DNA from: Halobacillus halophilus DSM 2266
Lineage (GTDB): Bacteria > Bacillota > Bacilli > Bacillales > Halobacillaceae
Reading direction: 5' to 3'
Assembly: GCF_000284515.1 (NCBI RefSeq)
Contig: NC_017668.1
Span: 1,178,001 to 1,242,000, forward strand
Length of the DNA stretch: 64,000 nt
Numbering within the stretch: the stretch's first letter is position 1; each line of letters begins with the position of its first letter. The position numbers and the translations under genes are program-made. The notes under the pieces are model-generated. The model did no database searches. It was given only the letters and a program-made list of their open reading frames with translations, and was not told the DNA's origin. Below, one piece after another: positions 2,354 through 61,412 of this stretch.

Positions 2354-2545
2354 AAGCTCCGGTTTGTTTAAGACTCAGTTTCGAGATATTTGTTGAGCGG
2401 AAGGTCCTCCGGGAGTGAAGCGACCGAAGAGGCTTGCCAGTTCCCCCACAGGAAAGCGAGTTGTTTCCGCAGCCACCCTTATTAAATTTTTGGCAATGGA
2501 CCCTAATTATAGAAACTGAGTCTTAAACAATCCGCCCCGATTGTT
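2354..2545. repeat. intergenic repeat R1 (short form)
   Basis: Terminus TAAGACTCAGTTTCGAGATA at 2369-2388 and its inverse, partly decayed, at 2511-2525. The conserved outer flanks are also present: AAGCTCC before the left end, and ACAATCCGCCCCGATTGT after the right end. Inside is one incomplete palindromic module that includes AGGAAAGCGAGTTGTTTCC. It occupies most of the 541-bp gap between divergent sulP and the usp gene. I see no gene in the gap. Confidence 0.85.
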
Positions 2546-2659
2546 TAAGAAAGTGCTTGTGAAAGTAGCTTATTATTATGAAACAATTGTGTTTGATTTT
2601 CATGGAATTCGTCTTACGTGTTAAAATAACCGCAGATGTTATGAAAACAGGGGGATTGT

Positions 2660-3079
2660 ATGTATAAGAAAATACTATTAGCTGCAGATGGATCAGGACA
2701 TTCCGTCCGAACAGCTGAACGTGCAGCCGAACTAGCCCGTCTGCAAGGAGATGGTGAAATTACAATCATCTATGTGGTAGACGGTGAACAATCAAAATCC
2801 GATGTACTATCAGAAGGCGACAAAGGAACGATCGAACTTCGCCGTCATGAGCGGCTGAATCCAATTGAGCAGATGTTAGAAAGTAAAGGGCTGTCCTATC
2901 AGGTAGCTTTAAAACATGGTGAGCCAGGCCCTGAGATTGTTAAATTTGCAAACGATGAAGCTTTTGATATTGTGGTAATTGGAAGTCGTGGTTTAAACAC
3001 TCTACAGGAAATGGTTCTCGGAAGTGTTAGTCACAAAGTAGCGAAGCGAGCCAAATGTCCGGTTATGATTGTAAAATAA
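2660..3079 (+). CDS. universal stress protein, UspA family
   Basis: A single 139-residue Usp domain, cytoplasmic. It begins with KKILLAADGSGHS, where the Asp contacts nucleotide, and ends with VVIGSRGLNTLQEMVLGSVS. This matches the ATP-binding form G-x2-G-x9-G(S/T) of the family. Usp proteins bind ATP, often dimerise and accumulate under stress; the exact role varies. A GGGGG ribosome site lies five bases before the ATG. It is divergent from the SulP gene, with repeat R1 between them, so it may tune anion or bicarbonate handling, but that is inference. Confidence 0.9.
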   Translation: MYKKILLAADGSGHSVRTAERAAELARLQGDGEITIIYVVDGEQSKSDVLSEGDKGTIELRRHERLNPIEQMLESKGLSYQVALKHGEPGPEIVKFANDEAFDIVVIGSRGLNTLQEMVLGSVSHKVAKRAKCPVMIVK

Positions 3080-3164
3080 CTAGATAATTTCTATGCTAAA
3101 TAAAACCTCATATCCGCATATATGAATAAATAGAGGAAATATTATTAAAAACAGGAGTGTGTCT

Positions 3165-3371
3165 ATGAGCGAACGAGGTTGTATTAAATGCGGCAGTACA
3201 GATGCCGAAGAAAATCATGTATCCATGACAGGCTCAGGTCTGTCCAATATATTAGATGTGCAAAATCATCAATTTACATTGGTCTATTGTAAGAATTGCG
3301 GTTACTCTGAATTTTACAATAAAGAGGCAGCTGAAGAAGGTAACGTTTTTGATTATTTCTTTGGCAACTAA
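3165..3371 (+). CDS. small zinc-ribbon protein (DUF2082-type)
   Basis: A 68-residue protein with two Cys pairs, GCIKCGS near the N-terminus and YCKNCGYSE near residue 47, forming a likely four-Cys zinc ribbon. This spacing is that of the predicted nucleic-acid-binding zinc-ribbon family DUF2082. The ATG at 3165 is preferred over an in-frame GTG at 3159 because AGGAG at 3153-3157 is seven bases before it. No partner is evident; it lies downstream of the usp gene and converges on an ABC permease gene. Function unknown. Confidence 0.8.
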   Translation: MSERGCIKCGSTDAEENHVSMTGSGLSNILDVQNHQFTLVYCKNCGYSEFYNKEAAEEGNVFDYFFGN

Positions 3372-3383
3372 CCTTTTGGGTAT

Positions 3384-3424
3384 AAAAAAGACTTCGACCT
3401 GATTCAGGTCGAAGTCTTTTTTAG
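3384..3424. terminator. bidirectional intrinsic terminator
   Basis: Long stem AAAGACTTCGACCTG / CAGGTCGAAGTCTTT with A/T runs at both ends, between convergent genes. Confidence 0.9.
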
Positions 3425-3429
3425 ATCGT

Positions 3430-5073
3430 TCAATGGATAGAATAATACCGCTTATCACTAAGTCGTTTCAAACCTGCATGGCAGGCGGTAATCAGGATAA
3501 TCAGAAAGGTAAGCAGAACACCTGAAGTTATCCAGATTCCACTGATCGCACTCACATTCCAAAGGATTAAAATAAGGGTACCGAATACCGTTGCTTCGAT
3601 TGCCAGCATGGCGAGCCCAATAAAACGTCCTTTAAAGACTTCGCGCTCATCGGTCCAGTCAAGCTTAGGACTGTAAAGATCAATGATGAGCCCTCCTATA
3701 CTGGTAACCCAATTGGTAACTAGCGCAAGAAGCAGCCAAATGATCCAGATCATAAAGGAAACCTGAACTAGAAATAAAGCCGCGAAGCTGAGAATAGCAA
3801 TGGTGAGAAGGTTTAACGTAAAAGCTGTTACAATTTTACTTCTAAGGACGGTTTGCGGCGCTATTGGCAGATGAAGATGATTGAACCAGCTTTTTCCATC
3901 TCTTGAAATCGAGGAGAACGAGGCAGGGGTCATCCCGACAGCCAGCAGAGTAAAACCAAACAGCCCGAGCACAAGTTTCTTTCCTTCTAATTGGGTAAGT
4001 AAAGAACCAAGACTTGCTACGGAAGTATTCGATTCCATAAATAAGATGACAAGCAGAAAGACGGGGAAAAAGAGACTCTGCACCACGATTTGCGTAAAGA
4101 AGGCAGGGGTGCGGAAAATGATTCTCATCTCTTTCAGCCATAGACTGTAAATAATCGGTTTTTGCTTAATCGTCTTATGTATCTTTTTCTCATCAAAACT
4201 GCCTCGTGTTCCTCCCGATAATCCAAGCACGCCTTTGAAATAAACCTTCTGGCCGACGGTTAGAAATAAAATGGCAAAACCTATCGATAATCCCAGCATC
4301 AGCAACAGATAAAGAACTCCTGTTAGAGAACCTGGCTGAGTCAGGGCGATCGAACTAAAATAAGCGGTTGGAAAGAAACCGGTAACCAGTTCAAGCAATC
4401 CATTCTGTTCCCTGATTAAATCGGCGGCACCGCTACCGTCTCCTCCACTGTCTAACCGGATCACGACATTAATTCCAATGGCAAATATAAAGCCGAACAT
4501 GCCGACAATGATTTTTGTACGGTCTTTATTCTTGGAAATGTTGGCAAAACGCATGAGAAACATAAGCACAATCGAAAGCAGTACAAATGGAATCACTGGT
4601 GTAACCGCCCATAGCAAAATAGCGAACAAATAATAAAGCAGGCCAGCACTACTGTGTAATCCGTAAAACAACAGAACCGGCAGTAAAACTAAAGCATTCA
4701 TTCCGTACAGAGACAAAAAAGGTATGGCAGATTTCCCAAGTACAATCTGATAAGGATGAAAGGGAAGAGCAATAAATGATTCTACGTCCTCCGCAAAGTA
4801 AAAGGAGCTTAAAACCGTTCCAATGCTGGTCACAAGAAAAATAACAAACATAAGAATAAAAAATAAAGCGAGAATGACACTTTCGTTTCCAGTTGGTGCC
4901 AGGGCATTGTAAAGGTTTCCAATTAAACTGTTCAAGGAGAATAAGATTAAGGCACCAAAGGGAATAAGCGCAAGAGCCATAATCACATAGCCGACTTTTT
5001 CCGAACTGCTTTTACCCGCCCAGGAGAGCTGCATTTTCACCATGATTTTCATTAATTTCCATGCATTACTCAT
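3430..5073 (-). CDS. ABC transporter permease, ABC-2 type
   Basis: A 547-residue polytopic membrane protein with roughly twelve hydrophobic segments and no catalytic motif. It is the membrane half of an exporter whose ATPase is the gene immediately upstream; the two reading frames overlap by 8 bp (5066-5073), so translation is probably coupled. Motifs such as FYFAEDVESFIALPFHPYQI occur in the large ABC-2 permeases of Bacillaceae exporters. The substrate is unknown; related pairs export peptides or drugs or act in envelope homeostasis. Confidence 0.8.
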   Translation of the reverse strand: MSNAWKLMKIMVKMQLSWAGKSSSEKVGYVIMALALIPFGALILFSLNSLIGNLYNALAPTGNESVILALFFILMFVIFLVTSIGTVLSSFYFAEDVESFIALPFHPYQIVLGKSAIPFLSLYGMNALVLLPVLLFYGLHSSAGLLYYLFAILLWAVTPVIPFVLLSIVLMFLMRFANISKNKDRTKIIVGMFGFIFAIGINVVIRLDSGGDGSGAADLIREQNGLLELVTGFFPTAYFSSIALTQPGSLTGVLYLLLMLGLSIGFAILFLTVGQKVYFKGVLGLSGGTRGSFDEKKIHKTIKQKPIIYSLWLKEMRIIFRTPAFFTQIVVQSLFFPVFLLVILFMESNTSVASLGSLLTQLEGKKLVLGLFGFTLLAVGMTPASFSSISRDGKSWFNHLHLPIAPQTVLRSKIVTAFTLNLLTIAILSFAALFLVQVSFMIWIIWLLLALVTNWVTSIGGLIIDLYSPKLDWTDEREVFKGRFIGLAMLAIEATVFGTLILILWNVSAISGIWITSGVLLTFLIILITACHAGLKRLSDKRYYSIH

Positions 5074-5788
5074 TTTCTGTTAACTCCAGGAATAGTCGTT
5101 CCAAATTATCATCATCTTGAAACTGCTGCTTCATTTCGCTCATATTTCCTTGAAATTGTACGTGTCCATGGTTAATAATCGCTACTTCATCACATAATTG
5201 CTCGACTACCTCCAGCACGTGTGTGGAGAAAAAGACGATTTTACCTCTTTCGGCGTGTTCTCTCATCATTTCTTTTAAAGTATGAGAAGACTTAGGGTCC
5301 AGGCCGGACAAGGGCTCATCTAAAATCCATACATCGGGGTCATGGAGAAGTACGCCACTTACAACGATTTTTTGCCGCATTCCATGGGAGTACGTCTGGA
5401 TATGATCATCAAGCGCTTCATAAATACCAAAGCTCCTGGTAAGATATTCGATTTTTTCTTTCCGCTCTTCTTTTGACACTTGAAATACGTCTGCAATGAA
5501 ATTTAAGTATTCAATCCCTTTCAGACGGAGGAATATATCTGAGCGGTCAGGGACGTACCCGAAAAGATGCTTTGCCTCCATGGGATAATCGGTAATATCC
5601 ACACCATTGATCGTAATAGAGCCCTCATCAATAGGCAGGATCCCTGTCATCATTTTAATAGTAGTCGATTTCCCTGCACCGTTCGGACCGAGAAAGCCGA
5701 AGATTTTCCCGTCGGGTATCGTTAAATTCAGATTTTTCACAGCCTGCTTGCCGTTGAAGCTTTTCGATATGCTCTTTAATTCAATCAT
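5066..5788 (-). CDS. ABC transporter ATP-binding protein
   Basis: A 240-residue ATPase with every ABC motif: Walker A GPNGAGKST near residue 38, the signature YSHGMRQK, Walker B VWILDEPLSGLD, and the switch His in FFSTHVLEV. It would energise the permease encoded downstream with an 8-bp overlap. The ATG at 5788 is chosen because AAAGGGTGG lies five bases upstream; the in-frame GTG at 5797 would overlap that ribosome site. It belongs to the CcmA/NatA-like exporter ATPases. Cargo unknown. Confidence 0.9.
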   Translation of the reverse strand: MIELKSISKSFNGKQAVKNLNLTIPDGKIFGFLGPNGAGKSTTIKMMTGILPIDEGSITINGVDITDYPMEAKHLFGYVPDRSDIFLRLKGIEYLNFIADVFQVSKEERKEKIEYLTRSFGIYEALDDHIQTYSHGMRQKIVVSGVLLHDPDVWILDEPLSGLDPKSSHTLKEMMREHAERGKIVFFSTHVLEVVEQLCDEVAIINHGHVQFQGNMSEMKQQFQDDDNLERLFLELTENE

Positions 5789-5848
5789 ACGGTCCACCCT
5801 TTACTAAATAATCTGCTTTTTAAGTACGATATGGATGGACGATAAGTT

Positions 5849-6355
5849 TCACTCCGTTAAGAATAGTTCCATCAGTTCTTCGTCCAGGTAGCGATCGGCT
5901 ATTTTAATAGCTTTTCGCTCTAAACCGTAGGATTGAAATCCAACTTTCTCATAGAGTTTCTTCGCAGGAGTATTGTCCGTAACGACATTTAAGTGGAGCA
6001 CTTCTAACTCAATTGCCTTCGAAAAATTAATAACTTCTTGTAAGAGGAGGGCAGCTCCGCCTTTCCGTCGGCAGCCTGGACTTACATACATAGCTACAAT
6101 ACTCCCTTTGTGAGAAAACTTAGGATGGGTTTCTTTAACCAGGGTAGCCGTCCCGCAAAGGGTGCCGTCTTCAAATAATCCAAAAGTACGTGAAGAAGGA
6201 CTGTCCAGCCTCTCCGCTGTTTTAACAAGAGGATCGGGTCTTTGTTTTTCCTGTTCATATGTAGTAATAAAAGCATCCGGGTTGGTTAATAATGCTTCTA
6301 ACCGCAGTTCATAATAGTCTTCTGCATCTTTTCCATTTAGTTCTCTCACCTGCAT
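5849..6355 (-). CDS. GNAT N-acetyltransferase
   Basis: A 168-residue GNAT enzyme. Motif A reads MYVSPGCRRKGGAALLL and the following strand LEVLHLNVVTDNTPAKKLYEKVGFQ carries the Asn and Tyr typical of the fold. The start is the ATG at 6355, with AGGAGGGA six bases upstream; an in-frame TTG at 6382 would include the ribosome site within the coding region. It stands alone, divergent from maa. The substrate cannot be inferred. Confidence 0.85.
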   Translation of the reverse strand: MQVRELNGKDAEDYYELRLEALLTNPDAFITTYEQEKQRPDPLVKTAERLDSPSSRTFGLFEDGTLCGTATLVKETHPKFSHKGSIVAMYVSPGCRRKGGAALLLQEVINFSKAIELEVLHLNVVTDNTPAKKLYEKVGFQSYGLERKAIKIADRYLDEELMELFLTE

Positions 6356-6445
6356 GGCAGATCCCTCCTTCGGTTGTTCCAAGTCTAGTTAAAAATTGTG
6401 GTAAAGTAAAGGAAGTTGTTCAACATATAATAAGAAGGTGAGTGT

Positions 6446-7000
6446 ATGACAGAAAAGGAAAAAATGCTGGCCGGCGAACTTTATAAATCCTGGGATGAGG
6501 AATTGGTTCACGAAAGGGCAAGAGCCAGGCAGATTGTTTATTCTCTCAATCAAACGAAAGATGCAGAAATGCATTATCGAAAGCAATTGATAGAAGACCT
6601 ATTTGGTACCCTGGAAGGAGAATATGGGCTCGAGCCTCCTTTCTTTTGCGATTACGGATACAATATTCACGTAGGGGAAGGGTTTTTCGCCAATTTCAAT
6701 TGCGTTTTTTTGGATGTCTGTTCTATTCGAATCGGAAAAAGGGTGCTCATTGGTCCGAGTGTGCAGCTTTATACCGCTACTCATCCAATGGACCGTGAAT
6801 CAAGAGCGAGAGGATTGGAAGCGGGAAAACCCATTACGATAGGCGATGACGTATGGATTGGAGGAAATGCCGTTATCAATCCTGGGGTGACCATCGGGGA
6901 TAATGTCATTGTTGGTGCTGGAGCGGTCGTAACCAAAGATGTTCCTTCAAACGTTTTTATAGGAGGAAACCCTGCTAAAACGATAAAAGTAATTGAGTAA
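6446..7000 (+). CDS. maa: maltose/galactoside O-acetyltransferase
   Basis: A 184-residue acetyltransferase built on a left-handed beta-helix. The N-terminal Mac domain ([18 protein letters not shown]) is typical of maltose and galactoside acetyltransferases. From residue ~75 hexapeptide repeats follow, ending in [20 protein letters not shown] and [16 protein letters not shown]. The catalytic His is in TATHPMD. The enzyme acetylates sugars in the cytoplasm, and the family forms trimers. Single gene with a GAAGGTGAG ribosome site before the ATG. The sugar specificity is inferred only from similarity to Maa. Confidence 0.88.
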
Positions 7001-7089
7001 GTCCCAGGGGTGGTCGAACGGGAATTTTTTCGATATTATACTATAGGATGCTTAGTTAAACGTTAGAGAGATAAGGAAGGAATGGGTGT

Positions 7090-7845
7090 ATGATTAAACG
7101 TAAAAGTAAACGAGAAATTGAATTAATGCAGGAAGCCGGTAAGCTGCTGGCTAACGTTCATAAAGAATTAAGAACATTTATCAAGCCAGGTGTGACCACA
7201 ATGGAGATTGAAAATTTTGTGGAACGTTATTTAACCAAACATGGAGCGACCGGTGAACAAAAAGGGTATCAGGGTTATGAGTTTAATACTTGTGCCTCCA
7301 TTAATGATGAAGTATGTCACGGTTTCCCTCGTCATGAGAAACTCGCTGAAGGAGATATCGTTACCGTGGATATGGTGGTGAATCTCAACGGTGCGCTTGC
7401 TGACTCTGCCTGGACCCATGCGGTAGGAAACGTTAGTGAAGAAGCAAGTAAGCTGATGGATGTAACAAAAACATCTCTATATAAAGGTATTGAGCAGGCT
7501 ATACCTGGGAATCGGATCGGTGATATTGGTCATGCGATTCAATCCTATGCGGAAGGAGAAGGCTACTCTGTCGTCCGCGACTTTACAGGTCACGGGATCG
7601 GCGAAGGCATTCATGAAGATCCATATATTCCGCATTTCGGTAATGCTGGAAAAGGTGCTCGTTTGAAAGAGGGAATGGTCATTACGATTGAACCGATGAT
7701 TAACATCGGCGGCTGGAGTACTAAGATGGATGATAATAACTGGACCGCCCGTACAGTAGATGGATCATTATCTGCACAGTATGAACATACGGTAGCTATC
7801 ACAAAAGACGGCCCCGTGATTCTAACTCAGCAGGAAGAAGAATAA
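7090..7845 (+). CDS. map: methionine aminopeptidase, type I (MapB-like)
   Basis: A 251-residue metalloenzyme that removes the initiator Met from nascent proteins. The five metal ligands of the family are present: Asp in VTVDMVV, Asp in GALADSAWT, His in FTGHGIGEGIHEDP, Glu in ITIEPMI, and Glu in YEHTVAI. It starts with the usual IKRKSKREIELMQEAG. It is a stand-alone gene outside the ribosomal protein cluster, as for the second B. subtilis enzyme (MapB/YflG), so it may be a paralogue. AAGGAATGGGTGT lies before the ATG, and a strong terminator follows. Confidence 0.92.
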   Translation: MIKRKSKREIELMQEAGKLLANVHKELRTFIKPGVTTMEIENFVERYLTKHGATGEQKGYQGYEFNTCASINDEVCHGFPRHEKLAEGDIVTVDMVVNLNGALADSAWTHAVGNVSEEASKLMDVTKTSLYKGIEQAIPGNRIGDIGHAIQSYAEGEGYSVVRDFTGHGIGEGIHEDPYIPHFGNAGKGARLKEGMVITIEPMINIGGWSTKMDDNNWTARTVDGSLSAQYEHTVAITKDGPVILTQQEEE

Positions 7846-7854
7846 ATAATTGCA

Positions 7855-7886: not shown

Positions 7887-7999
7887 AATTAGAGATCTAT
7901 ATGTATGTTTGGTTAGTGCAGCAAGAGGAAGATTTCTTATTAGTAAACATAGCTTCGTTAAACTTTTTTTGAGAATCTTTTATAAAAGGCTTATTACAT

Positions 8000-8590
8000 T
8001 AAAAGGCCGTAATGTGTAAGACTCAGTTTCGAGATATTTTGTAGAGAAAGGGGCTCCAGGGAACGGCTCGCTTTCCGCGGCCCTGCACTACGCAGGGTCG
8101 TTCGACGTTGCCACAGGACGTGGCGATCTTAGTATAACATCCCATGAGGTGAGCTTCCTCGGGCTTAACAGCCCTGCGGGATCTCACCAATCATGTTCAT
8201 CCCGCAGGAGTCTTCGCCGTTCCCTTCCGCCCCTTTGCGATCATGGAGCGCTCAAAATCATCTACGTATATGCCTCCATTTGAGGAGGGTGACCTATGAT
8301 CAACGTTAAATTCCGAGTCTATCCAGGGGGATAAACGCTTCTATAGAAGCATTTAAGACGATTTAAGGTTCTCCACTTGGTACGTTCACTAAATATCAGT
8401 TGGGTTGGTGGGGAAATGGCGAGACTCCCATGGGAGAAAGAACTAGGTGAGATCCCGCAGGGAGTGGAACGAGCGAGGAAGCTCGCCGTTCCCCCATAGG
8501 AAAGCGAGTTATTTCCCCACCAGCCCTCCTCCACATAGAGTAACGGACCCAAATTATCTTGAAACTGAGTCTTAAACAAACGGGAGATTA
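8000..8590. repeat. intergenic repeat R2 (full form, reverse orientation)
   Basis: Inverted termini at 8017-8036 and 8555-8574 (core 558 bp). The outer flanks are swapped relative to R3 and R7, so this copy is inserted in the reverse orientation. The right module (about 8400-8525) is the reverse complement of the left module of R7. The left module contains an extra 31-bp cassette at 8103-8133 that is identical in R9. It lies between the convergent map and csp genes. The open frames across it are by-products of the palindromes. Confidence 0.9.
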
Positions 8591-8633
8591 TCTGTAAAAT
8601 CAACAATGAGATGGAAGGGGATTTAAACATAAT

Positions 8634-11663: not shown

Positions 11664-11666
11664 TCA

Positions 11667-14411: not shown

Positions 14412-14503
14412 TCTGTTTATTGAAATTTAGCTCACCCTCAAGACGTGCTGTTTCTTGCCCTTAAGCGTTGCCTCATTTTAACCTAAGAATTGATTTACTA
14501 AAG

Positions 14504-15040
14504 ATAAGCTCCCGTTTGTAAGACTCAGTTTCGAGATAGATCGGGTCCGTTACTCTATGTGGTGGAGGGCTGTTGGGGAAATAACTCGCTTTCCTATGGG
14601 GGAACGGTGAGCTTCCTCGCTCGTTTCACTCCCTGCGGGATCTAACCTAGTTCCTTCTCCCATGGGAGTCTCGCCATTTCCCCATCACCCCAATGCTAAT
14701 AAGGTAAACGGACCCTGCTAAGGAGGATAAGGGCACAGCATGAACTCCTCGCAAATGCTTTTTACCTGCATAGGCGGAAAGGTGACCGCTGAAAATGGCT
14801 ATTCTTTGATCATCGGCCAAGTGCTTTCCTGTTTTTTCGGAGAACCATATATCGCAAGGTCCGGAGGGGGATGATGAAGACTCCTGCGGGATAGACATGA
14901 TCGGTGAGACCCCGGAGAGCTTTAGCTCGAGGAGGCTCAGCACATTCCCGCGGAAAGCGAATCATCCCCCGCAGGACCTTCACGGTGAACCAATATCTCG
15001 AAATCGAGTCTTACAGTATCCGGCCTTATACTGGAATAAA
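14504..15040. repeat. intergenic repeat R3 (full form)
   Basis: Termini at 14519-14538 and 14994-15013 (core 495 bp), with outer flanks AAGCTCCCGTTTG and TATCCGGCCTTATA. The left module (about 14550-14710) and right module (about 14855-14985) are inverted homologues. It lies between the divergent T-box/nhaC unit and azlC. Confidence 0.9.
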
Positions 15041-15137
15041 TTATTTATAAAGAATCAACAACCAGAATTTATATCTTTCAATCACTTGGATCCATTGTGT
15101 ATAATAGTGGAAATTTAGTAGAGAGGAAGGGAAGAGA

Positions 15138-16225: not shown

Positions 16226-16681
16226 ATGTATAGACAACAAGGATTCCCATTTGGACAAAACTTTGGAATTCCCGGGCAGGGACAGGGAGGACAGTTTGGA
16301 CCAGGCGGCCCATTTGGTGGTGGACCTCAAGGCCCGCCGTTCGGAGGAGGCCCCGGTCAGCCACCGCAAGGTCCGCCATTCGGAGGAGGTCCTGGTCAGC
16401 CGCCACAAGGTCCGCCATCTGGGGGAGGTGCACAATTACCACCGCCTCCTTCTTCACCTCCATCCCAACAAGGGGCTTCCGTGTATGCGGTAGATCCTGG
16501 ATCGCTTTTTGGATGTTTATATCGGTACACTTGGATCAGACTGGAAAATGGACGCTCTTTCTGGTTTTATCCAACGTTCATAGGAAGAACCTCTGTGGCT
16601 GGTTACCGATGGCAGCGGAGAAGACGTCAATGGGTTTACACGGGCTTCGATACAAGTTTAATTTCGAATTTTCAATGTTAA
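16226..16681 (+). CDS. Gly/Pro/Gln-rich protein with conserved aromatic C-terminus, possible spore coat protein
   Basis: A ~151-residue protein in two parts. Residues ~5-85 are low-complexity Gly/Pro/Gln, including 13-residue repeats of the type QGPPFGGGPGQPP. The last ~60 residues are ordered and aromatic (CLYRYTWIRLENGRSFWFYP, then VAGYRW), suggesting a small beta-rich domain. No signal peptide or membrane segment. A ribosome site GGAAAGGG serves either the ATG at 16226 or a GTG one codon earlier. A sigma-K-like promoter and the composition fit a late mother-cell coat or crust protein, but I do not recognise the family and this is inference. Confidence 0.7.
   Translation: MYRQQGFPFGQNFGIPGQGQGGQFGPGGPFGGGPQGPPFGGGPGQPPQGPPFGGGPGQPPQGPPSGGGAQLPPPPSSPPSQQGASVYAVDPGSLFGCLYRYTWIRLENGRSFWFYPTFIGRTSVAGYRWQRRRRQWVYTGFDTSLISNFQC
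16328..16444 (+). repeat. 39-bp tandem coding repeat
   Basis: Three consecutive 39-bp units beginning at 16328, 16367 and 16406, each starting CAAGG(C/T)CCGCC. The first two are nearly identical and the third is degenerate. They encode the 13-residue Gly/Pro repeat and could vary in number between strains. Confidence 0.8.
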
Positions 16682-23004: not shown

Positions 23005-23030
23005 GAGGGGAACCTATTCCTCTCTTTTTT
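23004..23030 (+). terminator. intrinsic terminator
   Basis: AGAGGGGAA / TTCCTCTCT stem (one G-T pair) followed by six Ts. Confidence 0.85.
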
Positions 23031-23054
23031 CATTCTATATAAGTTATTCAACAA

Positions 23055-23205
23055 ACGGGCAGGATTGTGTAAGACTCGATTTCGAGATACTGGGTAGAGA
23101 AAGGGATCCAGGGAAAGCGAGTTGTTTCCGTAGCTGCCCTCATCTATTGTTTGCAACGGCCCCCAACTATCTCGAAACTGGGTCTTCAAGTATCGGTAGC
23201 TTGTA
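23055..23205. repeat. intergenic repeat R4 (shortest form)
   Basis: Termini at 23070-23089 (TAAGACTCGATTTCGAGATA) and 23168-23186, a core of only ~117 bp. Between them remain GAGAAAGGGATCCAGGG, AAGCGAGTTGTTTCCG and the end of a module. The whole looks like an internal deletion of the kind of copy seen in R8. It lies between convergent genes. Confidence 0.85.
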
Positions 23206-23233
23206 AAGATCAATTTGGCGGTATTGCAAAGGT

Positions 23234-24145
23234 TTATACGATGGGGTTGCTGAAACGGTTGACCAGTCCTTCTGATAGAGGAGCTCCTGTGTCATACGAT
23301 CGATTGCCGATCATGTCTTTTATTTCTTTCAGGCGGCTTCTATCGGGATTCTCCCAATAAGATAAGATAAGCTGGAATAAAAGCTTTCCTTCTTCGAGCG
23401 CCTCTTCATAATGGTCAAGAAAAGAAGATGTATGCGGCTCATTAGTCGCTGGGTGATGCCAGCGGTTTTTTTGCTCATTCAGATAATCCTTGTCATCGTT
23501 AACCGGTTGATGAGAAAAAGAAGAAACTAGGGAACCGAAGTATTTGTTTTTCCATTTCCATGGGTCATACAGCACACGCTGCGCAAACTGAATATGGCGG
23601 TAGGACTGGTGAATAAAGTTATCAGGATAGTCTTCCGATAAACCTGGGAAATGCGTGTCCAGGAGCAAGTCCATTAGTTGGGCAATAGAAGGCAGCGAAC
23701 TGCTTTTTATTTCTTTATGAACTGGATTCTTCCAAGTTTTTATTGAACGGAACCGCTCAAGCATAATGGTGTCAATGATGGTCTCCAACTCCTGATGCTT
23801 ATTTGCCTCATAACCAGCATGGTAATGGATATAAGGGTGAGTGTTACGGTCAAGTATATGATGGCTGACAAATCCAAGAATGAAGGCCTGAAGGTGATTC
23901 TTATGATAAGCACCCCGCTCAATCATGTCTATTAACAGAGGACCGCATTGCTCGGTATGTAATTTCATCCCCACTTCATCCACGTGTTCGTTTTGAGAGA
24001 AAGGCAGGAAGTTATGGTAAAAGAACGGATCCGGTCCCTGTGCTCCTAAGTGAAGAGAATGGCCGGATGTCTGAATAAGATCATGTCGGTTCAGCTCGTT
24101 ACATAATTGATCGACAAATAATACATGGGTCCAAATATTTGGCAT
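23234..24145 (-). CDS. zinc-dependent phospholipase C-like protein
   Basis: A 303-residue protein matching the Zn-dependent PLC family (PF00882). The N-terminus MPNIWTHVLFVDQL supplies the Trp/His typical of the family. Metal-ligand candidates continue through HLGAQGPDPFFYH and FVSHHILDRNTHPYIHYHAG. No signal peptide is present, so it is probably cytoplasmic and not a toxin. TTGGAGG lies eight bases before the ATG at 24145. Upstream on the same strand is a promoter-leader-terminator unit that could control it. Substrate unknown. Confidence 0.82.
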   Translation of the reverse strand: MPNIWTHVLFVDQLCNELNRHDLIQTSGHSLHLGAQGPDPFFYHNFLPFSQNEHVDEVGMKLHTEQCGPLLIDMIERGAYHKNHLQAFILGFVSHHILDRNTHPYIHYHAGYEANKHQELETIIDTIMLERFRSIKTWKNPVHKEIKSSSLPSIAQLMDLLLDTHFPGLSEDYPDNFIHQSYRHIQFAQRVLYDPWKWKNKYFGSLVSSFSHQPVNDDKDYLNEQKNRWHHPATNEPHTSSFLDHYEEALEEGKLLFQLILSYWENPDRSRLKEIKDMIGNRSYDTGAPLSEGLVNRFSNPIV

Positions 24146-29365: not shown

Positions 29366-29529
29366 GTTATTCACCTCCCTGTAATAGTTTGTCCCGTAAT
29401 GAATAGAACCATGAAGGTTTCACACGATGACCTTTGGATTTTCATATTTCTTATAAGCGGAACTATTCACATCAACAGTTAAGTTCTGTTAAATACTATT
29501 TGATTCTTATAAGAGGCTTATTTAAGAAA

Positions 29530-30060
29530 AAGGCCGGATTGTGGAAGATTCAGCTTCGAGATAACTTGGGTCCGTTGCTGATATAGAGAGGGGCTGGCTA
29601 CGGAAACAACTCGCTTTCCTGCGCGGGAACTGGCAAGCCTCCTCAGTCGTTATCACTCCTTGTGGGGTCTCGCCTAGCTCCTTCTCCCGCGGGAGTCTCG
29701 TCGTTTCCTCCGCCACCCTATGATGGAAGAGTGAACGGACCCTTCTATAGACGATAGAGGGGTTCTTGATCCGCCTTAAATGCTTCTATAGCGGGAATGA
29801 TCTACACGTACACGCTTATTGTTAGAAGTTTATCTCCATCATAAAACGGCGCGTTTCGAGCAGAGATTTCGAGCTCCATATATCGCAAGGTCCGGAGGGG
29901 GACGATGAAGACTTCTGCGGGATGAACATGATCGGTGAGATCCCACAGGGCTGTTAAGCCCGAGGAAGCTCAGCACATGCCCGCGAAAAGCGAAATCGTC
30001 CCCCGCAGGACCAAATTCTCACAAAAGTCTCGAAATCAAGTCTTCAAGAAACGGGAGCTT
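29530..30060. repeat. intergenic repeat R5 (full form, reversed ends)
   Basis: Termini at 29544-29563 (GAAGATTCAGCTTCGAGATA) and 30027-30045, core ~502 bp. The outer flanks are swapped: GGCCGGATTGT is on the left and AACGGGAGCTT on the right, so the ends are reversed relative to R3. Yet the two inner modules are in the same left-right order as R3, R6 and R7, which points to recombination between copies. It fills the gap between the small hypothetical gene and yheB. Confidence 0.88.
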
Positions 30061-30138
30061 TACTTTAAGAGCAATAAAGGGATTTAGCAGCGTAAAGAAT
30101 GAAAGGAAACGAAAAACGGCGGTTTTTTTACATAAAAA

Positions 30139-40499: not shown

Positions 40500-41032
40500 A
40501 CCTCCCATTACTTGAAGACTCAGTTTCGAGATAAATGGGTCCTTTACGTTAGATGGACAAGGGCTGGTGGGGAAATAACTCGCTTTCCTATGGGGGAACG
40601 GTGAGCTTCCTCGCTCGTTTCACTCCCTGTGGGATCTCACCTAGTCCCTTCTCCCATGGGAGTCTCATCATTTCCCCACCACCCCAACTATAATGTTGCG
40701 AACGGACCCTTCCAGAAGAGAATGGTTCTCCTCTGTAATCTGTAGGGAATGCTATCATGACGGGCTGTGTGGGTCGTTATATCCTAACTACATGGTCTAA
40801 TACTTCATTATGCAGGTGATGGTTGAAGTGGTTTCGAGCTTCTGATTTGGCCAGGTCCGGAGGGGGGATGATGAAGACTCCTGCGGGATAAACATGATCG
40901 GTGAGACCCCGGAAGTCGAAGACTGAGGAGGCTCAGCACATGCCCGCGGAAAGCGAATCATCCCCCGCAGGACCTTTCTTGTCATAAAAGTATCTCGAAA
41001 TCGAGTCTTACACAATCCGGCCCTTTAGTGAA
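40500..41032. repeat. intergenic repeat R6 (full form)
   Basis: Termini at 40514-40533 and 40991-41010, core ~497 bp, with outer flanks ACCTCCCATTAC and ACACAATCCGGCCCT. Left module ~40560-40690; right module ~40853-40978. The inner modules are nearly identical to those of R7. It lies between the GbsR-like gene and yhaM, both on the plus strand. Confidence 0.9.
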
Positions 41033-54545: not shown

Positions 54546-54639
54546 TACGTTTTGATCATAATTAATGAATTGCTTTAAAAGAATACCTTGAATTAGTGCC
54601 TTTATTTCTTATGAGTTACAAAATTGAGTCTTACAGATA

Positions 54640-55182
54640 AGCTCCCTTTTCTGTAAGACTCAGTTTCGAGATAGTTTGGGTCCGTTACTCTATGTGGAAG
54701 AGGGTTGGTGGGTAAATAACTCGCTTTCCTATGGGGGAACGGTGAGCTTCCTCGTTCGTTTCACTCTCTGCGGGATCTCACCTAGTCCCTTCTCCCATGG
54801 GAGTCTCGCCATTTCCCCACCAACCCAACTATAATTTTGTGAACGGACCCTTCTTTAGAAGGGCAGGTTGTTGGACTTAATCCTTTCTAAATCCAGTGGT
54901 ATCAAACCTTTTCTATCAAAATTTAGAGAAAACAGGACTCATGGCATGATTTTATCTTTCCTATCCAAGTGATTTTTGCCAATGTTTCGAGCCTCTCATT
55001 TCAGCAAGGTCCGGAGGGGGATGATGAAGACTCCTGCGGGATAAACATGATCGGTGAGACCCCGGAAGTCGAAGACTGAGGAGGCTCAGCACATGCCCGC
55101 GGAAAGCGAATCATCCCCCGCAGGACCTTTCTTCTCATAAAGATATCTCGAAACTGAGTCTTCAACTAGCCGGCCCTATTGT
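54640..55182. repeat. intergenic repeat R7 (full form)
   Basis: Termini at 54654-54673 and 55144-55163, core 510 bp, with outer flanks AAGCTCCCTTTTCTG and CCGGCCCTATTGT. Left module ~54690-54850, right module ~55005-55130, central spacer ~150 bp. The best-preserved copy. A loose end-like fragment AATTGAGTCTTACAG at 54622-54636 lies just outside. It separates ecsB from ecsC. Confidence 0.92.
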
Positions 55183-55309
55183 TAAATAAGAGGTAGAGAG
55201 AAGGGTGAGTAATATTATGTTTTTTAAATTTGTGGATGTTTTGCTTTAGAGGCTTTCTAGTGTGTTTCATTGTATGATGAAGATATTCGAATAAAGAGGG
55301 GTGTTACTT

Positions 55310-57198: not shown

Positions 57199-57339
57199 TC
57201 GTAACTTCCTCCTATGGTTTCTATAGATTGCATAAAGTGTAATATAAGTAACCCTAATTCTCAAACAAATTAGATTAGTCTAAAAAATGAGAGGTCTATT
57301 CTTTACAAAAAGACTCTGCTAAATCTCTAGTGTTTTTCA

Positions 57340-57545
57340 AGAAAGCTCCCTTTTCTGTAATACTCAGTTTCGAGATAACTCGGGTCCGTTGCCAAAAAAT
57401 GGTGAGGGCGGCTACGGAAACAACTCGCTTCCTACGACCCTGCGTCGTGCAGGGCCGCGGTAAGCGAGCCGTTCCCTGGAGCCCCTTTCTCCACACAATA
57501 TCTCGAAACTGAGTCTTCAACAATCCGGCCCTATTGTGTAGTATC
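57340..57545. repeat. intergenic repeat R8 (short form)
   Basis: Termini at 57358-57377 and 57499-57518, core ~161 bp; outer flanks AAGCTCCCTTTTCTG and ACAATCCGGCCCTATTGT. One palindromic module with inner stem CCCTGC / GCAGGG. Its reverse complement matches the left part of R2. It is between yhaA and the ferritin-like gene, both on the minus strand. Confidence 0.88.
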
Positions 57546-57576
57546 TCTTTTGAATAGATAACGCTCATCAGGTACA

Positions 57577-57604
57577 AAAAAACCGCTGCTTAAGCAGCGG
57601 TTTT
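57577..57604 (-). terminator. intrinsic terminator of the ferritin-like gene
   Basis: Perfect palindrome AAACCGCTGCTTAAGCAGCGGTTT flanked by A and T runs. Confidence 0.9.
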
Positions 57605-57612
57605 GAATTCGT

Positions 57613-58050
57613 CTATTCAGCTAATCGAGAATCCTGTAGCATACGACCGATTTCTTCATAGTGACCTGTTTCATCAGAGATTAAGTCATCGAGTTTAACT
57701 GCAAGTTCAGTAAGGCCAAGTTCTTCTGCCTGAACTTTACGCTCTTCATAACGCTTGATGGTTTGACGTTCAGCTTCTCTTGCTTCTTCAAGCATCGGTT
57801 TCACTTCTGTATGCTGCTTCACCTCTGCTGGAGTTGTAGTAGGCGTGCCGCCAAGTATGCTGATTTTCTCGGATAAGTAAAGAGCATGTGCTTGTTCATC
57901 AGCCACTTCGCTTTCGAAGAATGGTTTCAGTACAGAACGATATAGACCTGAAACAACCGCTGCGTTATACGTGTACATGATTGAAGCGGCATATTCGTTG
58001 GCCAAGTCTTCATTTAGTCCGTCGATTAATACCTTCATTTTTTCATCCAT
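57613..58050 (-). CDS. ferritin-like protein (Dps/bacterioferritin class)
   Basis: A 145-residue four-helix protein. Di-iron ligand candidates are spaced as in ferritins: Glu in LANEYAASIMY, Glu and ExxH in EVADEQAHALYL, Glu in EEAREAERQTI, and ExxH in ISDETGHYEEI. It probably oxidises and stores iron or protects DNA from iron-driven oxidation. A sigma-B-like promoter upstream suits general stress expression. AAAGGATG precedes the ATG. Not classical Dps in detail, so no symbol. Confidence 0.85.
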   Translation of the reverse strand: MDEKMKVLIDGLNEDLANEYAASIMYTYNAAVVSGLYRSVLKPFFESEVADEQAHALYLSEKISILGGTPTTTPAEVKQHTEVKPMLEEAREAERQTIKRYEERKVQAEELGLTELAVKLDDLISDETGHYEEIGRMLQDSRLAE

Positions 58051-58091
58051 ATGACAACATCCTTTCTATAAAAAAGTTGCACAGTTTAGGT

Positions 58092-58116
58092 ATTCCCTGA
58101 GAGTTGCTGTTTAAAC
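58092..58116 (-). promoter_or_regulatory. sigma-B promoter of the ferritin-like gene
   Basis: Minus strand: GTTTAA, a 13-base spacer, GGGAAT, an exact match to the sigma-B consensus, ~40 bases before the start codon. Confidence 0.8.
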
Positions 58117-58241
58117 CCCACCTCAATATTTTCTAACTCCGACTTAAGACGGAGAATAAACCCACCTTCCGCTTGTTTCTAAGTGGTAGGAAAAAGGCTA
58201 AAGTAAGGATATTAAACGTTTCTTTTATTAAGAAGGGATTC

Positions 58242-59066
58242 ATGGAAGAAATAGAGAATAACTCATCGCAGGATGAAAAAAGGGTGATTCAATTGAGGAA
58301 AAGAGCAGCAAATATTTTATTAGCGACAGGATTGGTTGTGATTGGAGCCATCCTTCTATTGGCCAACCTCGGGATTATTTCCTTGGAAATAGAGTTTTCG
58401 TGGTCTACGATTTATCCAGTTCTGTTAGCCGGAATTGGTTTGAAATTGTGGGGAGATTCTCTCTTGAAACAAGGAGGTTCCTGGACGTTAGGCTCCTTTC
58501 TTACAGTGTTTGGAGTCCTTCTCATTATGGATCGTTTTGAAGTGATCTCATTTCAGTTTGCGGATGTCCTGCGTTTGTGGCCGTTGTTATTTATATATAT
58601 CGGTTTCAGTATATTTCTTGGCGGACAAAAAACGAAAAAATTTCAATTCGATACAAATGGAGCTGATTCCTACCACCAACCTTCTTTAGGCAAGAAGAGA
58701 AAATCAACTAAGATGCTTATTGGAGATCATTCCTATAATGATGAGAACTGGAAGGTCGAGCCAATGGATTTATGGAATGGCATAGGGGATTACAAGTTTG
58801 ATTTCACCAGAGCGTTCATTCCTGATGGGGATACTCCGATCATTGTAAGAGGGTGGATTGGTGATGTGAAAATGATTATTCCGAATAACGTTCCGTTTCG
58901 TGTCGAAGCGAGGATTAAGACCGGGGATATAAAAGTGGCCGGCCAGACAGCCGATGGTTTTCGAAGAGAGATTGTTTATGAAACGGAAGATTACCAATTG
59001 GCTGACAGGAGATTATCTTTATGGATTGATTTCAATGTAGGTTCAATTAAGGTCGAGCGTGTGTAG
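58242..59066 (+). CDS. liaF: LiaF-like envelope stress membrane protein
   Basis: A ~274-residue protein. Residues ~20-130 contain four membrane segments with the repeated form of LiaF (WSTIYPVLLAGIGLKLWGDS). The C-terminal domain is soluble (GDYKFDFTRAFIPDGDTPII, IIPNNVPFRVEARIKTGDIK), the cell-wall-active antibiotic response domain. LiaF holds LiaS inactive until envelope damage by bacitracin-like agents. AAGAAGGGATTC lies before the ATG at 58242. It leads a three-gene operon with liaS and liaR. Confidence 0.88.
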   Translation: MEEIENNSSQDEKRVIQLRKRAANILLATGLVVIGAILLLANLGIISLEIEFSWSTIYPVLLAGIGLKLWGDSLLKQGGSWTLGSFLTVFGVLLIMDRFEVISFQFADVLRLWPLLFIYIGFSIFLGGQKTKKFQFDTNGADSYHQPSLGKKRKSTKMLIGDHSYNDENWKVEPMDLWNGIGDYKFDFTRAFIPDGDTPIIVRGWIGDVKMIIPNNVPFRVEARIKTGDIKVAGQTADGFRREIVYETEDYQLADRRLSLWIDFNVGSIKVERV

Positions 59067-59077
59067 GGGGGAGCAGA

Positions 59078-60142
59078 ATGTTTAAGCAGTTGAACAGTAT
59101 CCGATATATGTATATTCGTTCGCATTTGTACGGGCTTATCTTGAATATATTTATTATGCTTGCGCTGCTTCTCTCTGTTCATGTGTGGTTTAATCCTAAT
59201 TGGCTTCACCCCGGTGCGATCTTGTTTTTTATCGCTTCTTATCTCTTAGTAGGATTTGTAATGGCGGTCTATGCCGGCTTCAAGTCAAGCGGGGATATGA
59301 AACAACGTATGGACTATATTTCTACGATGATTACCAGGCTTGCCCGCGGCGAACTGTCATCACGATTATATTTTAATGAGGATGATGAAATTTCAGGAAT
59401 CGCTGACGAGCTGAACACGCTTGGGGAGAAGCTGCACCAGCAGCGGGAATCTCTTCTGAAACTTGCGGATGAAAAAGGTGAACTGGCGCGTACTGCACAC
59501 AAGGCGGCGACCATTGAAGAGCGGCAGCGGCTGGCAAGAGATCTTCACGATGCGGTCAGTCAGCAGCTGTTTGCTTTAACTATGATGGCTCAGGCGGCTG
59601 GTCGTGTAATTGAAAAGAAACCCGAACAAGCCAAAAAACAGCTGAAGGAAATTACTCAAATGGCTTTGCAGGCTCAAACAGAAATGAGAGCGCTGCTTCT
59701 ACATTTGCGGCCGGTTCACTTATCAGGTGAACCCCTGGGGCAGGGGATTGCTTCGCTCATTGAAGAACTGAAGCAAAAATGTTCTCTTGATTTCAAGGTT
59801 CAATTGGAAGACGTTACAGATTTGTCGAAAACGACGGAAGAACATCTTTTCAGAGTGGTCCAGGAAGCACTATCGAACATTCTCCGGCATGCAAACGCTA
59901 AGGAAGTCAAGGTGGAAATGACGAGCTCCAGCCGTGAAGTTTTTTTACATATTGCTGATGACGGCTCGGGATTTCATGCAGAAGACAAACAGGATAATAA
60001 AGCATCTTATGGATTAAAAACGATGAGAGAACGCTGTGAAGAGGTGGGTGGCGAGTTCACGATCCGTTCCCGCGTAGGAGAAGGGACTCACATTGACCTT
60101 CGAGTTCCTAAACAGCTATCTATTAAGGAGGCAGAAGAGTGA
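59078..60142 (+). CDS. liaS: LiaS-like sensor histidine kinase
   Basis: A 354-residue NarL-class (HPK7) kinase. Two membrane segments in residues ~15-70 with a short loop (HVWFNPNWLHP) mark an intramembrane-sensing kinase. HAMP follows, then the phospho-acceptor His in RLARDLHDAVSQQLF. ATP-binding motifs are VQEALSNILRHANA (N box), DDGSGF (G1) and GLKTMRERCEEVGG. GGGGGGAG lies before the ATG; the stop overlaps liaR as GTGA. Confidence 0.92.
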   Translation: MFKQLNSIRYMYIRSHLYGLILNIFIMLALLLSVHVWFNPNWLHPGAILFFIASYLLVGFVMAVYAGFKSSGDMKQRMDYISTMITRLARGELSSRLYFNEDDEISGIADELNTLGEKLHQQRESLLKLADEKGELARTAHKAATIEERQRLARDLHDAVSQQLFALTMMAQAAGRVIEKKPEQAKKQLKEITQMALQAQTEMRALLLHLRPVHLSGEPLGQGIASLIEELKQKCSLDFKVQLEDVTDLSKTTEEHLFRVVQEALSNILRHANAKEVKVEMTSSSREVFLHIADDGSGFHAEDKQDNKASYGLKTMRERCEEVGGEFTIRSRVGEGTHIDLRVPKQLSIKEAEE

Positions 60143-60771
60143 TACGTGTCGTAGTTATTGACGATCATGAAGTGGTTCGTAAGGGAGTCATCGCTTATCT
60201 AAATACGGAAGAGGAGCTTGAGATTGTCGGAGAAGCTTCAGACGGTCATACAGGAGCAGCGCTTGTAAAAGAGTTAAAACCTGATGTGGTATTAATGGAT
60301 TTAATTATGGAAAATGGGACGGGGATTGAAGCTACGGAAGAAATAATGAAGTCAGAGATATGCAGAATTATTATTCTGACGAGCTTTTATGATGATGAAA
60401 AAGTGTTTCCGGCACTAGAAGCTGGAGCATTCAGCTATATGCTGAAAACTTCTTCTGCTGACGAAATTGCCGAGGCGATCAAGAAAGCTTACCGCGGTGA
60501 AAACGTGATTGAGCCGAAAGTGGCTACCAAGATGATGACTCGTTTCCGTCAGGATAAGAAACCTCATGAAGAATTGACCAATCGTGAGCGGGAAGTTTTA
60601 TTATGTATTGGAGAAGGGATGACCAATCAGGAGATTAGTGACAACCTTTTCATCGGAATTAAAACGGTAAAAACGCATGTAAGCAATGTGCTCAGCAAGT
60701 TAGAAGTACAGGATCGTACTCAAGCGGCTGTCTATGTCCATCGCAATGGTCTGTTGAAAAAAGATTCATAA
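60139..60771 (+). CDS. liaR: LiaR-like response regulator
   Basis: A 210-residue NarL-type regulator. Receiver residues are Asp8 and Asp9, phospho-acceptor Asp54 (VVLMDLIME), and Lys in YMLKTSS. The C-terminal LuxR-type HTH reads ELTNREREVLLCIGEGMTNQ, then FIGIKTVKTHVSNVL. GTG start overlaps the liaS stop by four bases. No liaIH target genes are present in the window, so the regulon lies elsewhere or is different. Confidence 0.92.
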   Translation: MIRVVVIDDHEVVRKGVIAYLNTEEELEIVGEASDGHTGAALVKELKPDVVLMDLIMENGTGIEATEEIMKSEICRIIILTSFYDDEKVFPALEAGAFSYMLKTSSADEIAEAIKKAYRGENVIEPKVATKMMTRFRQDKKPHEELTNREREVLLCIGEGMTNQEISDNLFIGIKTVKTHVSNVLSKLEVQDRTQAAVYVHRNGLLKKDS

Positions 60772-60799
60772 GATCAAGTTCTTTACACAGGCATTGGTT

Positions 60800-61412
60800 C
60801 AAGAAAAGCTCCCGTTTGTTTAAGACTCAGTTTCGAGACAATTGGGTCCTTTACGTTAAATGGAGGAGGGCTGGTGGGGAAATAACTCGCTTTCCTATGG
60901 CCCTACACGACGTGGGGTCGATCGACGTTGCCACAGGACGTGGCGATCTTAGTCGATCCTCCTTTTTACGTTGAGCTTCCTCGCTCGTTTCACTCCCTGC
61001 GGGATCTCACCTAGTTCCTTCTCCCATGGGAGTCTCGTCATTTCCCCACCAATCAACTCTAATTTTGCGAACGGACCCTTCTTTAGAAGGGCAGGTGTTG
61101 GACTTAATCCTTTCTAAATCCAGTGGTATCAGACCTTTTCTATCAAAACTTAGAGAAAACAGGAACTCATGGCATGATTTTTATATATCCTTTCCAAGTG
61201 ATTTTTGCCAATGTTTCGAGCCTCTCATTTCAGCAAGGTCCGGAGGGGGACGATGAAGACTCCTGTGGGATAAACATGATCGGTAAGATCCCGGAAGGCG
61301 AAGCCTGAGGAAGCTTACCACATGCCCACGGAAAGCGAAATCGTCCCCCGCAGGACCTTCACTGTGAACCAATATCTCGAATTCGAGTCTTCAACTATTC
61401 GGCCCTATTGTT
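60800..61412. repeat. intergenic repeat R9 (longest, with cassette)
   Basis: Termini at 60821-60840 and 61373-61392, core 572 bp; outer flanks AAGCTCCCGTTTG and TTCGGCCCTATTGT. The left module carries the cassette at 60923-60953 that is identical for 31 bases to R2 8103-8133. The central spacer (~61070-61230) is nearly identical to that of R7. It lies between liaR and bdbC. Confidence 0.9.

What the first reader, a model, noticed from the sequence alone, without database searches (positions are those of the whole stretch)
2354..61412. Nine copies of an intergenic repeat family with common inverted termini
TAAGACTCAGTTTCGAGATA and its inverse TATCTCGAAACTGAGTCTTA bound nine segments: R1 2369-2525, R2 8017-8574, R3 14519-15013, R4 23070-23186, R5 29544-30045, R6 40514-41010, R7 54654-55163, R8 57358-57518, R9 60821-61392. 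They sum to ~3.6 kb, 5-6% of the window, and every copy is between genes: three divergent, two convergent, four tandem. No transposase is inside. The ends, size and orientation changes suggest a MITE-like element or a mobile structured RNA. I recall similar G+C-rich strings in other Bacillaceae but know of no named family.
Basis: partly seen in the sequence, partly recalled or inferred. Interest (0 to 1): 0.78.

Follow-up and report, generated by a model that had tools for sequence, protein, structure and literature searches.

The report
IS1595-type MITEs with swapped interiors
The nine repeats look like remnants of a small non-coding transposon that mostly sits at the same places in sister species while its palindromic interior is replaced by that of other copies, so the frame is inherited but the filling is not.

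Summary
Confirmed: nine intergenic copies of a family with 190 motif matches per strand genome-wide. The 20-bp motif is not the terminus. In related copies the ends are GGCTCTRTTAAA...TGTTGATTTT, about 49 bp outside one motif and 65 bp outside the other, flanked by an 8-bp target duplication (31 of 142 copies testable; identity 0.76 against 0.41 shuffled, z 10.5). An IS1595 transposon of Pontibacillus has the same ends and duplication. A Halobacillus sp. A1 transposase, 91% identical, has one such end upstream and the motif as a hairpin downstream. So these are IS1595-type MITEs, though the window's own outer ends are eroded. The interior is two opposed hairpins of an order-wide motif (44 of 120 genomes), at times holding Rfam's Bacillaceae-1 as a module. 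Unexpected: 17 of 19 sites are occupied in G001 too, but with other interiors. The orthologous interior ranks 9.6 of 19 on average (random 10); flanks rank first in 18 of 18. Near-identical interiors in unrelated frames suggest ectopic gene conversion bounded near the motif; a recombinase is not excluded. No function, and no selection for an RNA, was shown.

The parts
2369..2525 (+). R1: motif-bounded interior, short form B..A (X side left). With outer ends about 2320-2590 (extrapolated by 49/65 bp)
8017..8574 (-). R2: interior C..A with Bacillaceae-1 module (X side right). About 7952-8623 with outer ends (extrapolated)
8082..8148 (-). Bacillaceae-1 (RF01690) module inside R2
   Evidence: 51.4 bits
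14519..15013 (+). R3: full two-hairpin interior A..B (X side left). About 14470-15078 with outer ends (extrapolated)
23070..23187 (-). R4: short form C..A (X side right). About 23005-23236 with outer ends (extrapolated)
29544..30045 (-). R5: full two-hairpin interior A..B (X side right). About 29479-30094 with outer ends (extrapolated)
40514..41010 (+). R6: full two-hairpin interior A..B (X side left), 98% identical over 525 bp to a copy 1.87 Mb away (L139); left outer end at 40464 matches 17 of 25 positions
54654..55163 (+). R7: full two-hairpin interior A..B (X side left); site absent in G001. About 54605-55228 with outer ends (extrapolated)
57358..57518 (+). R8: short form A..C (X side left). 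About 57309-57583 with outer ends (extrapolated)
60821..61392 (+). R9: full interior A..B with Bacillaceae-1 module (X side left); site absent in G001. About 60772-61457 with outer ends (extrapolated)
60902..60968 (-). Bacillaceae-1 (RF01690) module inside R9
   Evidence: 68 bits

Best explanation
The nine copies are old, non-autonomous derivatives (MITEs) of an IS1595-family transposon. A complete copy reads: 8-bp duplicated target, GGCTCTRTTAAA...TGTTGATTTT, a 20-bp loop of type X, the 20-bp motif, an interior of two opposed long hairpins with a linker, the inverted motif, a loop of type Y, the inverted outer end, and the same 8-bp target. They were placed by an IS1595-type transposase acting on the outer ends (inferred from ends and duplications), which is probably now absent from this genome (no PF12762 match). 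Since then most frames have stayed put, while the interiors have been overwritten by those of other copies. The most likely route is ectopic homologous recombination (gene conversion). The 20-bp motif plus the half-conserved loops serve as homology arms, and breakage of the long palindromes perhaps starts the event. Shown here: ends, target duplications, IS1595 partner, conserved sites, non-orthologous interiors, near-identical interiors in unrelated frames. Inferred: the conversion mechanism and the breakage.
For: Outer ends at fixed distances (49 and 65 bp commonest) on both sides in 31 of 142 copies; 8-bp duplication identity 0.762 against 0.412 in shuffled pairings, z 10.5; next best are 7 bp (z 4.3) and 9 bp (z 3.4). 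Of 17 facing pairs of outer ends in 2.2 Mb of held DNA, 9 have a perfect 8/8 duplication. A Pontibacillus IS1595 transposon of 2204 bp with GGCTCTGTTAAAGTT...TGTTGATATTT at both ends and a perfect 8-bp duplication. A Halobacillus sp. A1 transposase, 349 aa, 91% identical to that one, with one such end held upstream and the 20-bp motif as a hairpin behind the gene. Sites occupied in 17 of 19 in G001. Interiors scrambled: the orthologous interior ranks on average 9.6 of 19, first in 2 of 18, whereas flanks rank first in 18 of 18. Identity falls from 0.64-0.70 outside to 0.44-0.46 just inside the motif, no better than 0.48-0.50 for non-orthologous pairs. At 14 of 15 sites a paralog is closer than the ortholog. 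Eleven pairs with 95% or more identical interiors have outer sequence at baseline (0.41 against 0.44) and keep orientation to the frame.
Against: The window's own outer ends are eroded (best 17 of 25 positions, no clear duplication), so the MITE assignment rests on copies elsewhere. 111 of 142 copies did not show both outer ends at up to 3 mismatches. PF12762 was found in none of 22 genomes of the genus; Halobacillus sp. A1 may not be among them. The Pontibacillus transposon has no 20-bp motif, and only 4 of 26 stand-alone motif hairpins have a detectable transposase tail. The 11 recent pairs come from only four groups of copies, and unrelated pairs share orientation in 435 of 699 anyway. Homology of 20-40 bp is short for RecA-type conversion. 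Flips such as A..B to B..A at one site are not explained by conversion that keeps orientation.
Confidence: 0.65

Rival explanations
1. The interior is a cassette with its own recombination sites: the inverted 20-bp motifs are recognised by an unidentified recombinase or transposase that inverts it and swaps it between frames (recombinase-mediated cassette exchange).
For: Orthology is lost at the motif on both sides; orientation flips between species occur and one site looks like an inversion in place (inverted score 353 against direct 32); the motif is the best conserved of the flanking parts (0.84-0.86 in orthologous and non-orthologous pairs).
Against: Pairs with recent transfers keep orientation in 11 of 11 at 95% or more and 13 of 13 at 90-95%, though from few groups of copies, and at 95% part of the loop seems to move too (loop 0.83 against 0.72), as homology-driven transfer would. 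Near-empty frames are rare: 1 of 125 in-facing motif pairs had under 60 bp between motifs. No search for a recombinase gene was made.
Confidence: 0.2
2. REP/BIME-like repeats moved by a RAYT (Y1 HUH) transposase.
For: Opposed hairpin pairs resemble BIMEs; PF01797 matches are in 17 of 22 genus genomes, and four of the five genomes without one have few motif copies.
Against: In 20 regions around RAYT-like genes only matches at 4-6 mismatches to the motif were found. A genome with 8 inner-hairpin hits has no Y1 match (G108). Y1 is widespread in the order, 102 of 120, so presence says little. HUH transposition leaves no target duplication (recalled), and an 8-bp one is present.
Confidence: 0.05
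3. A conserved structured RNA: the copies are transcribed and kept for their RNA fold.
For: Strong predicted folds (R7 z -8.1 and -6.6 on the two strands, R1 -2.8, R8 -4.0); an Rfam sRNA family matches inside two copies; G-T pairs outnumber A-C mismatches 52 to 25 on one strand.
Against: Folds are about as strong on the other strand (80 of 144 lower); interiors are replaced or inverted at the same locus; mixed gene context; Bacillaceae-1 had no match in four genomes rich in the hairpin.
Confidence: 0.06

Closest known systems
IS1595-family insertion sequences and transposons (NF033547, PF12762)
   Same: Same outer end over 24 bp (GGCTCTGTTAAAGTTTAATGTTGA in G000 copies, and beside the Halobacillus sp. 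A1 transposase), 8-bp target duplication
   Different: No transposase; interior of palindromic non-coding DNA; high copy number
RUP element of Streptococcus pneumoniae (proposed MITE of IS630-Spn1)
   Same: High-copy intergenic MITE sharing ends with an IS (PMC2229807, passages read)
   Different: 107 bp, TA target; no exchange of interiors mentioned in the passages read
bcr1 repeats of the Bacillus cereus group (named in PMC3733652, passage read); BOX elements of pneumococcus (recalled)
   Same: Intergenic repeats with mobile character; BOX is modular (recalled)
   Different: No sequence comparison with either was run here
Bacillaceae-1 RNA (RF01690)
   Same: 67-bp module inside R2 and R9
   Different: It covers about a tenth of those copies; here it is an optional insert in a larger repeat
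IS inversions by recombination between terminal inverted repeats in Wolbachia (PMC3004938)
   Same: Short inverted repeats of one element recombine; inversion and conversion in place (abstract and passages read)
   Different: There the true TIRs recombine; here an internal motif, and interiors move between loci

Membership tests
MITE of the IS1595 family | Terminal inverted repeats shared with an autonomous IS | tested here: met
   Ends equal to those of an IS1595 transposon in related copies; weak in the window copies
MITE of the IS1595 family | Target-site duplication of 8 bp (length for the family recalled) | tested here: met
   z 10.5 at 8 bp in 31 of 142 copies; not visible in the nine window copies
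MITE of the IS1595 family | No transposase inside | tested here: met
   Nine window copies: no ORF with a Pfam match
MITE of the IS1595 family | Moved by the partner transposase | not testable with these tools
   Needs a transposition assay; PF12762 in 0 of 22 genus genomes
REP/BIME with RAYT | RAYT gene flanked by its own repeats | tested here: not met
   20 RAYT regions, matches at 4-6 mismatches only
REP/BIME with RAYT | Short palindromes of 20-40 bp (PMC3733652, start of abstract) | tested here: not met
   Hairpins of R7 are about 120-170 nt
Bacillaceae-1 RNA | Match above gathering score | tested here: met
   R2 and R9 only, 67 nt each
Bacillaceae-1 RNA | Independent sRNA gene | tested here: inconclusive
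   30 loci checked: G000 and G001, 14 of 14 have a 20-bp motif within 800 bp, 11 on both sides; G019, 7 of 7 have one, 1 on both sides (6 are short contig ends); G141 0 of 6; G108 0 of 3. Transcription not testable
Structured RNA | Pairing kept on one strand by G-U | tested here: inconclusive
   52 against 25 cells at pairs predicted on both strands; MFE 80 of 144

The most novel reading that the evidence does not exclude
A non-coding homing system: fixed, dead transposon frames act as docks, and palindromic cassettes invade dock after dock by breaking at their own hairpins (or through a dedicated recombinase acting on the 20-bp motif), so that a genome-wide set of perhaps 190 loci shares one recombining pool of interiors while each dock is inherited vertically.
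Probability: 0.25. Interest if true: 0.8.

Novelty: new variant of a known kind. Interest (0 to 1): 0.6.

Why it matters
Bacterial repeat families are usually taken to spread by transposition or to decay in place. Here position and content are uncoupled: the frame follows the species while the filling follows a pool inside the genome. If it holds genome-wide, ectopic recombination between short repeats becomes measurable at some 190 natural loci, and the origin of mosaic hairpin repeats is explained. It also warns that an Rfam 'sRNA' family (RF01690) may in part annotate a module of mobile repeats, and ties an abundant Bacillales hairpin, for which I found no name, to a transposon family.

Tried and rejected
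The 20-bp motif as true terminus: rejected, because conserved sequence continues 48-67 bp outward and the target duplication lies beyond it.

IS200/IS605 or RAYT mobilisation: three Y1 loci (L203-L205) and 20 RAYT regions show only 4-6 mismatch matches to the motif.

IS256 (Transposase_mut) as partner: 4 of 22 genomes match, 8 matches in all; four of those loci were checked and none shows an outer end at up to 1 mismatch.

IS6: one opened plasmid hit (Priestia flexa, chance-level E-value 7) has an IS6-family gene about 0.9 kb away; whether it has facing ends was not tested.

rRNA-operon link (recalled for Bacillaceae-1): 7 rRNA operons located; not pursued.

A gap in copies at 1.69-3.02 Mb suggested is probably a listing artefact (minus-strand hits of the window are missing from that list); searches show family pieces there.

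Replication-strand bias: read by eye from the capped list, none seen.

Clean empty sites: R7 and R9 are absent in G001, and one G019 element (c36538) in both others, but flanks are too diverged for exact joins.

Papers: no held paper contains any of five short sequence strings of the family. Searches on Halobacillus repeats and genome, bcr1, REP in Bacillaceae, Bacillales palindromes, Bacillaceae-1, and IS1595 with MITE listed nothing that, by title and start of abstract, describes it. Five papers were opened, none whole: PMC2864571, PMC3733652, PMC9029176, PMC2229807 (passages) and PMC3004938 (abstract and passages).

Plasmids and phages: a 631-base query around R7 matched 6 of 72,556 plasmid records, at most 16% of the query, and no phage record.

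Full report
WHAT WAS CHECKED. The 20-bp motif is in the window 15 times at up to 3 mismatches (0.01 expected). The nine segments are as described, between genes, with no ORF that matches Pfam. The genome (4,170,008 bases in 3 contigs) has 190 matches on each strand. From its contig sizes I believe it to be Halobacillus halophilus DSM 2266 (recalled, not from a call). Contig lengths tie G001 to H. halophilus AcN7-4 and G019 to H. alkaliphilus FP5. At up to 2 mismatches the motif occurs in 26 of 41 genomes searched: 21 of 22 of the genus, 3 of 3 others of the family, 2 of 16 others of the order; both strands together, genus counts run from 0 to 358.

THE REAL ENDS. Sequence outside the motif is also conserved: a 20-bp loop of type X on one side and type Y on the other, then more. 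Copies with well-kept flanks show an outer inverted repeat, GGCTCTRTTAAA followed by TGTTGATTTT, mostly 48-50 bp outside the X-side motif and 62-67 bp outside the Y-side motif. Of 142 distinct copies in the held sequence, 31 have both outer ends at up to 3 mismatches within 44-70 bp. Their 8-bp flanks agree at 0.762 against 0.412 for shuffled pairings (z 10.5); 7 and 9 bp give z 4.3 and 3.4, the other lengths tried (3-11) less than 3. With ends at up to 1 mismatch, 8 of 11 have 7 or 8 of 8 duplicated bases. In 2.2 Mb of held DNA 17 facing pairs of outer ends (up to 1 mismatch each, 150-3000 bp apart) were found and 9 have a perfect duplication. In the window itself the outer ends are eroded: the best is 17 of 25 positions (R6 left, R9 right) and no clear duplication remains. 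The nine are therefore assigned through their relatives.

THE PARTNER. A 42-base query of the end found eight plasmid records, all weak (E 0.1 or more). I opened five. In one, Pontibacillus sp. ALD_SL1, the match is one end of a 2204-bp insertion between two pieces annotated as glutamine synthetase. It carries a gene annotated as IS1595-family transposase. Both ends read GGCTCTGTTAAAGTT...TGTTGATATTT and the duplication TTTCGAAT is perfect. The protein matches NF033547 at 209 bits and PF12762 at 51 bits. A search of the loci held by then found a 91% identical, complete 349-aa transposase in Halobacillus sp. A1 (L037) and fragments in L014, L088 and L121. In L037 the outer end lies upstream of the gene, and the 20-bp motif lies just downstream as a 60-bp hairpin (inverted motif, 20-bp loop, motif). 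The other end of that transposon was not found in the held stretch. Such stand-alone hairpins were seen at 26 distinct places, 4 with a detectable transposase tail. So the motif belongs to at least some of this transposon group in Halobacillus, although the Pontibacillus member lacks it. PF12762 was not found in 22 genomes of the genus, G000 among them.

THE INTERIOR. The commonest interiors are 494-513 bp with motifs: hairpin, linker, opposed hairpin. Longer forms carry inserts and shorter forms look like internal deletions. R7 folds at z -8.1. The hairpin core (GACTCCYGYGGGA...GTGAGAYCCC) is in 44 of 120 genomes of the order, 29 of 73 genera, with no control hits in the listing. Of six loci viewed from other genera, at least three (L254, L256, L259) show a single hairpin and two (L257, L258, one family) show signs of the paired form. 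Three outer-stem types, A, B and C, were told apart by short motifs. Bacillaceae-1 (RF01690) is an optional insert. It matches R2 and R9 and at least 97, 78 and 97 places in G000, G001 and G019 (150 of about 500 candidates scored each), 8 in G141, 3 in G108 and none in four hairpin-rich genomes; among the controls it rings in Bacillus subtilis. In two G141 loci that I printed it sits in a different GC-rich repeat.

SITES STAY, INTERIORS CHANGE. I compared the window and a further 160 kb of G000 with the matching stretches of G001 and G019; long alignments outside are 85-95% identical, mostly 91-94%. Of 19 G000 elements, 17 have an insert at the same site in G001, 15 of them with a detected motif pair; R7 and R9 are absent. 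R7 is present in G019. The four G000 sites of the 160 kb that could be mapped in G019 are all occupied, but one of four G019 elements there is absent from G000 and G001. The arrangement of half-types is the same in only 3 of 14 fully typed G000-G001 pairs; three further pairs were only partly typed. Over 20 orthologous pairs, identity is 0.64-0.70 outside, 0.71-0.75 in the loops, 0.85-0.86 in the motif and 0.44-0.46 in the next 40 bp. Non-orthologous pairs give 0.38-0.42, 0.58-0.59, 0.84-0.86 and 0.48-0.50. Ranking the 19 sampled G000 interiors by likeness to the G001 or G019 interior puts the orthologous one at mean rank 9.6 of 19 (random 10.0) and first in 2 of 18; flanks rank first in 18 of 18; loops first in 6 and first or second in 11 of 18. 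At 14 of 15 sites some other G000 interior, from 47 sampled, is closer than the orthologous one in either orientation. The exception looks like an inversion in place. G001 and G019 are drafts, but the compared contigs run through these copies and the motif is shorter than assembly words, so chimeric assembly is an unlikely cause (inference).

HOW INTERIORS MOVE. Among 46 distinct G000 elements, the full-length ones give 11 pairs with interiors 95% or more identical, from four groups of copies. All keep orientation to the X/Y frame (unrelated pairs: 435 of 699); their motifs are 0.97 and loops 0.83 alike, while outer sequence is at baseline (0.41 against 0.44). Recent whole-element transposition would have copied the outer sequence too. 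The pattern fits gene conversion using motif and loops as homology. Recombination between short terminal repeats of an IS, with inversion, is on record in Wolbachia at 9% of loci examined (PMC3004938, abstract and passages read). That long palindromes start the process by breaking is my inference from knowledge of hairpin cleavage by SbcCD (recalled). The sample of G000 copies was partly drawn by likeness to R7, so type counts are biased; the site comparisons do not depend on that draw, except for the 47-copy comparison.

ALTERNATIVES. RAYT mobilisation is disfavoured. Selection for an RNA is not shown. A recombinase acting on the motif is not excluded and was not searched for.

NOVELTY. MITEs of IS families are known, and so are modular repeats. 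I found no paper naming this family (open-licence library only). The uncoupling of frame and interior is the unusual part.

Noticed in passing
L192 1-305 (G019, site orthologous to R5): A group II intron (RF00029 at 209-305) lies directly beside the hairpin sequence of the element, as if inserted in it.
   Followed up: partly
L004 1501-2306, L062 4280-5129, L266 1373-2443: A further module (AAAAGCGGAAGC...GCTGGATAGC) is inserted in the hairpins near their CTCCYGCGGGAG palindrome; it resembles a dispersed Bacillus repeat that I recall.
   Followed up: no
L260 and L282 (G141 contig C18): Bacillaceae-1 copies lie within repeats of another GC-rich kind (GAGCTGGACA in L260, a similar ending in L282).
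   Followed up: partly
L215 3009-3563 and related regions: RAYT-like genes without flanking repeats of this family; in L220 and L234 an ORF that looks like comM (by eye) lies beside one.
   Followed up: partly
L258 (G098, another family of the order): A diverged inner motif with an X-like loop beside the hairpin, so the frame may be wider spread than the 2-mismatch search shows.
   Followed up: no
window 16324-16401: A 39-bp tandem repeat within an ORF, coding a proline- and glycine-rich stretch by the look of its sequence.
   Followed up: no
L311 3501-5704: The Pontibacillus IS1595 transposon carries a DUF6176 gene and a small hypothetical gene as passengers and lies between two pieces annotated as glutamine synthetase.
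   Followed up: partly
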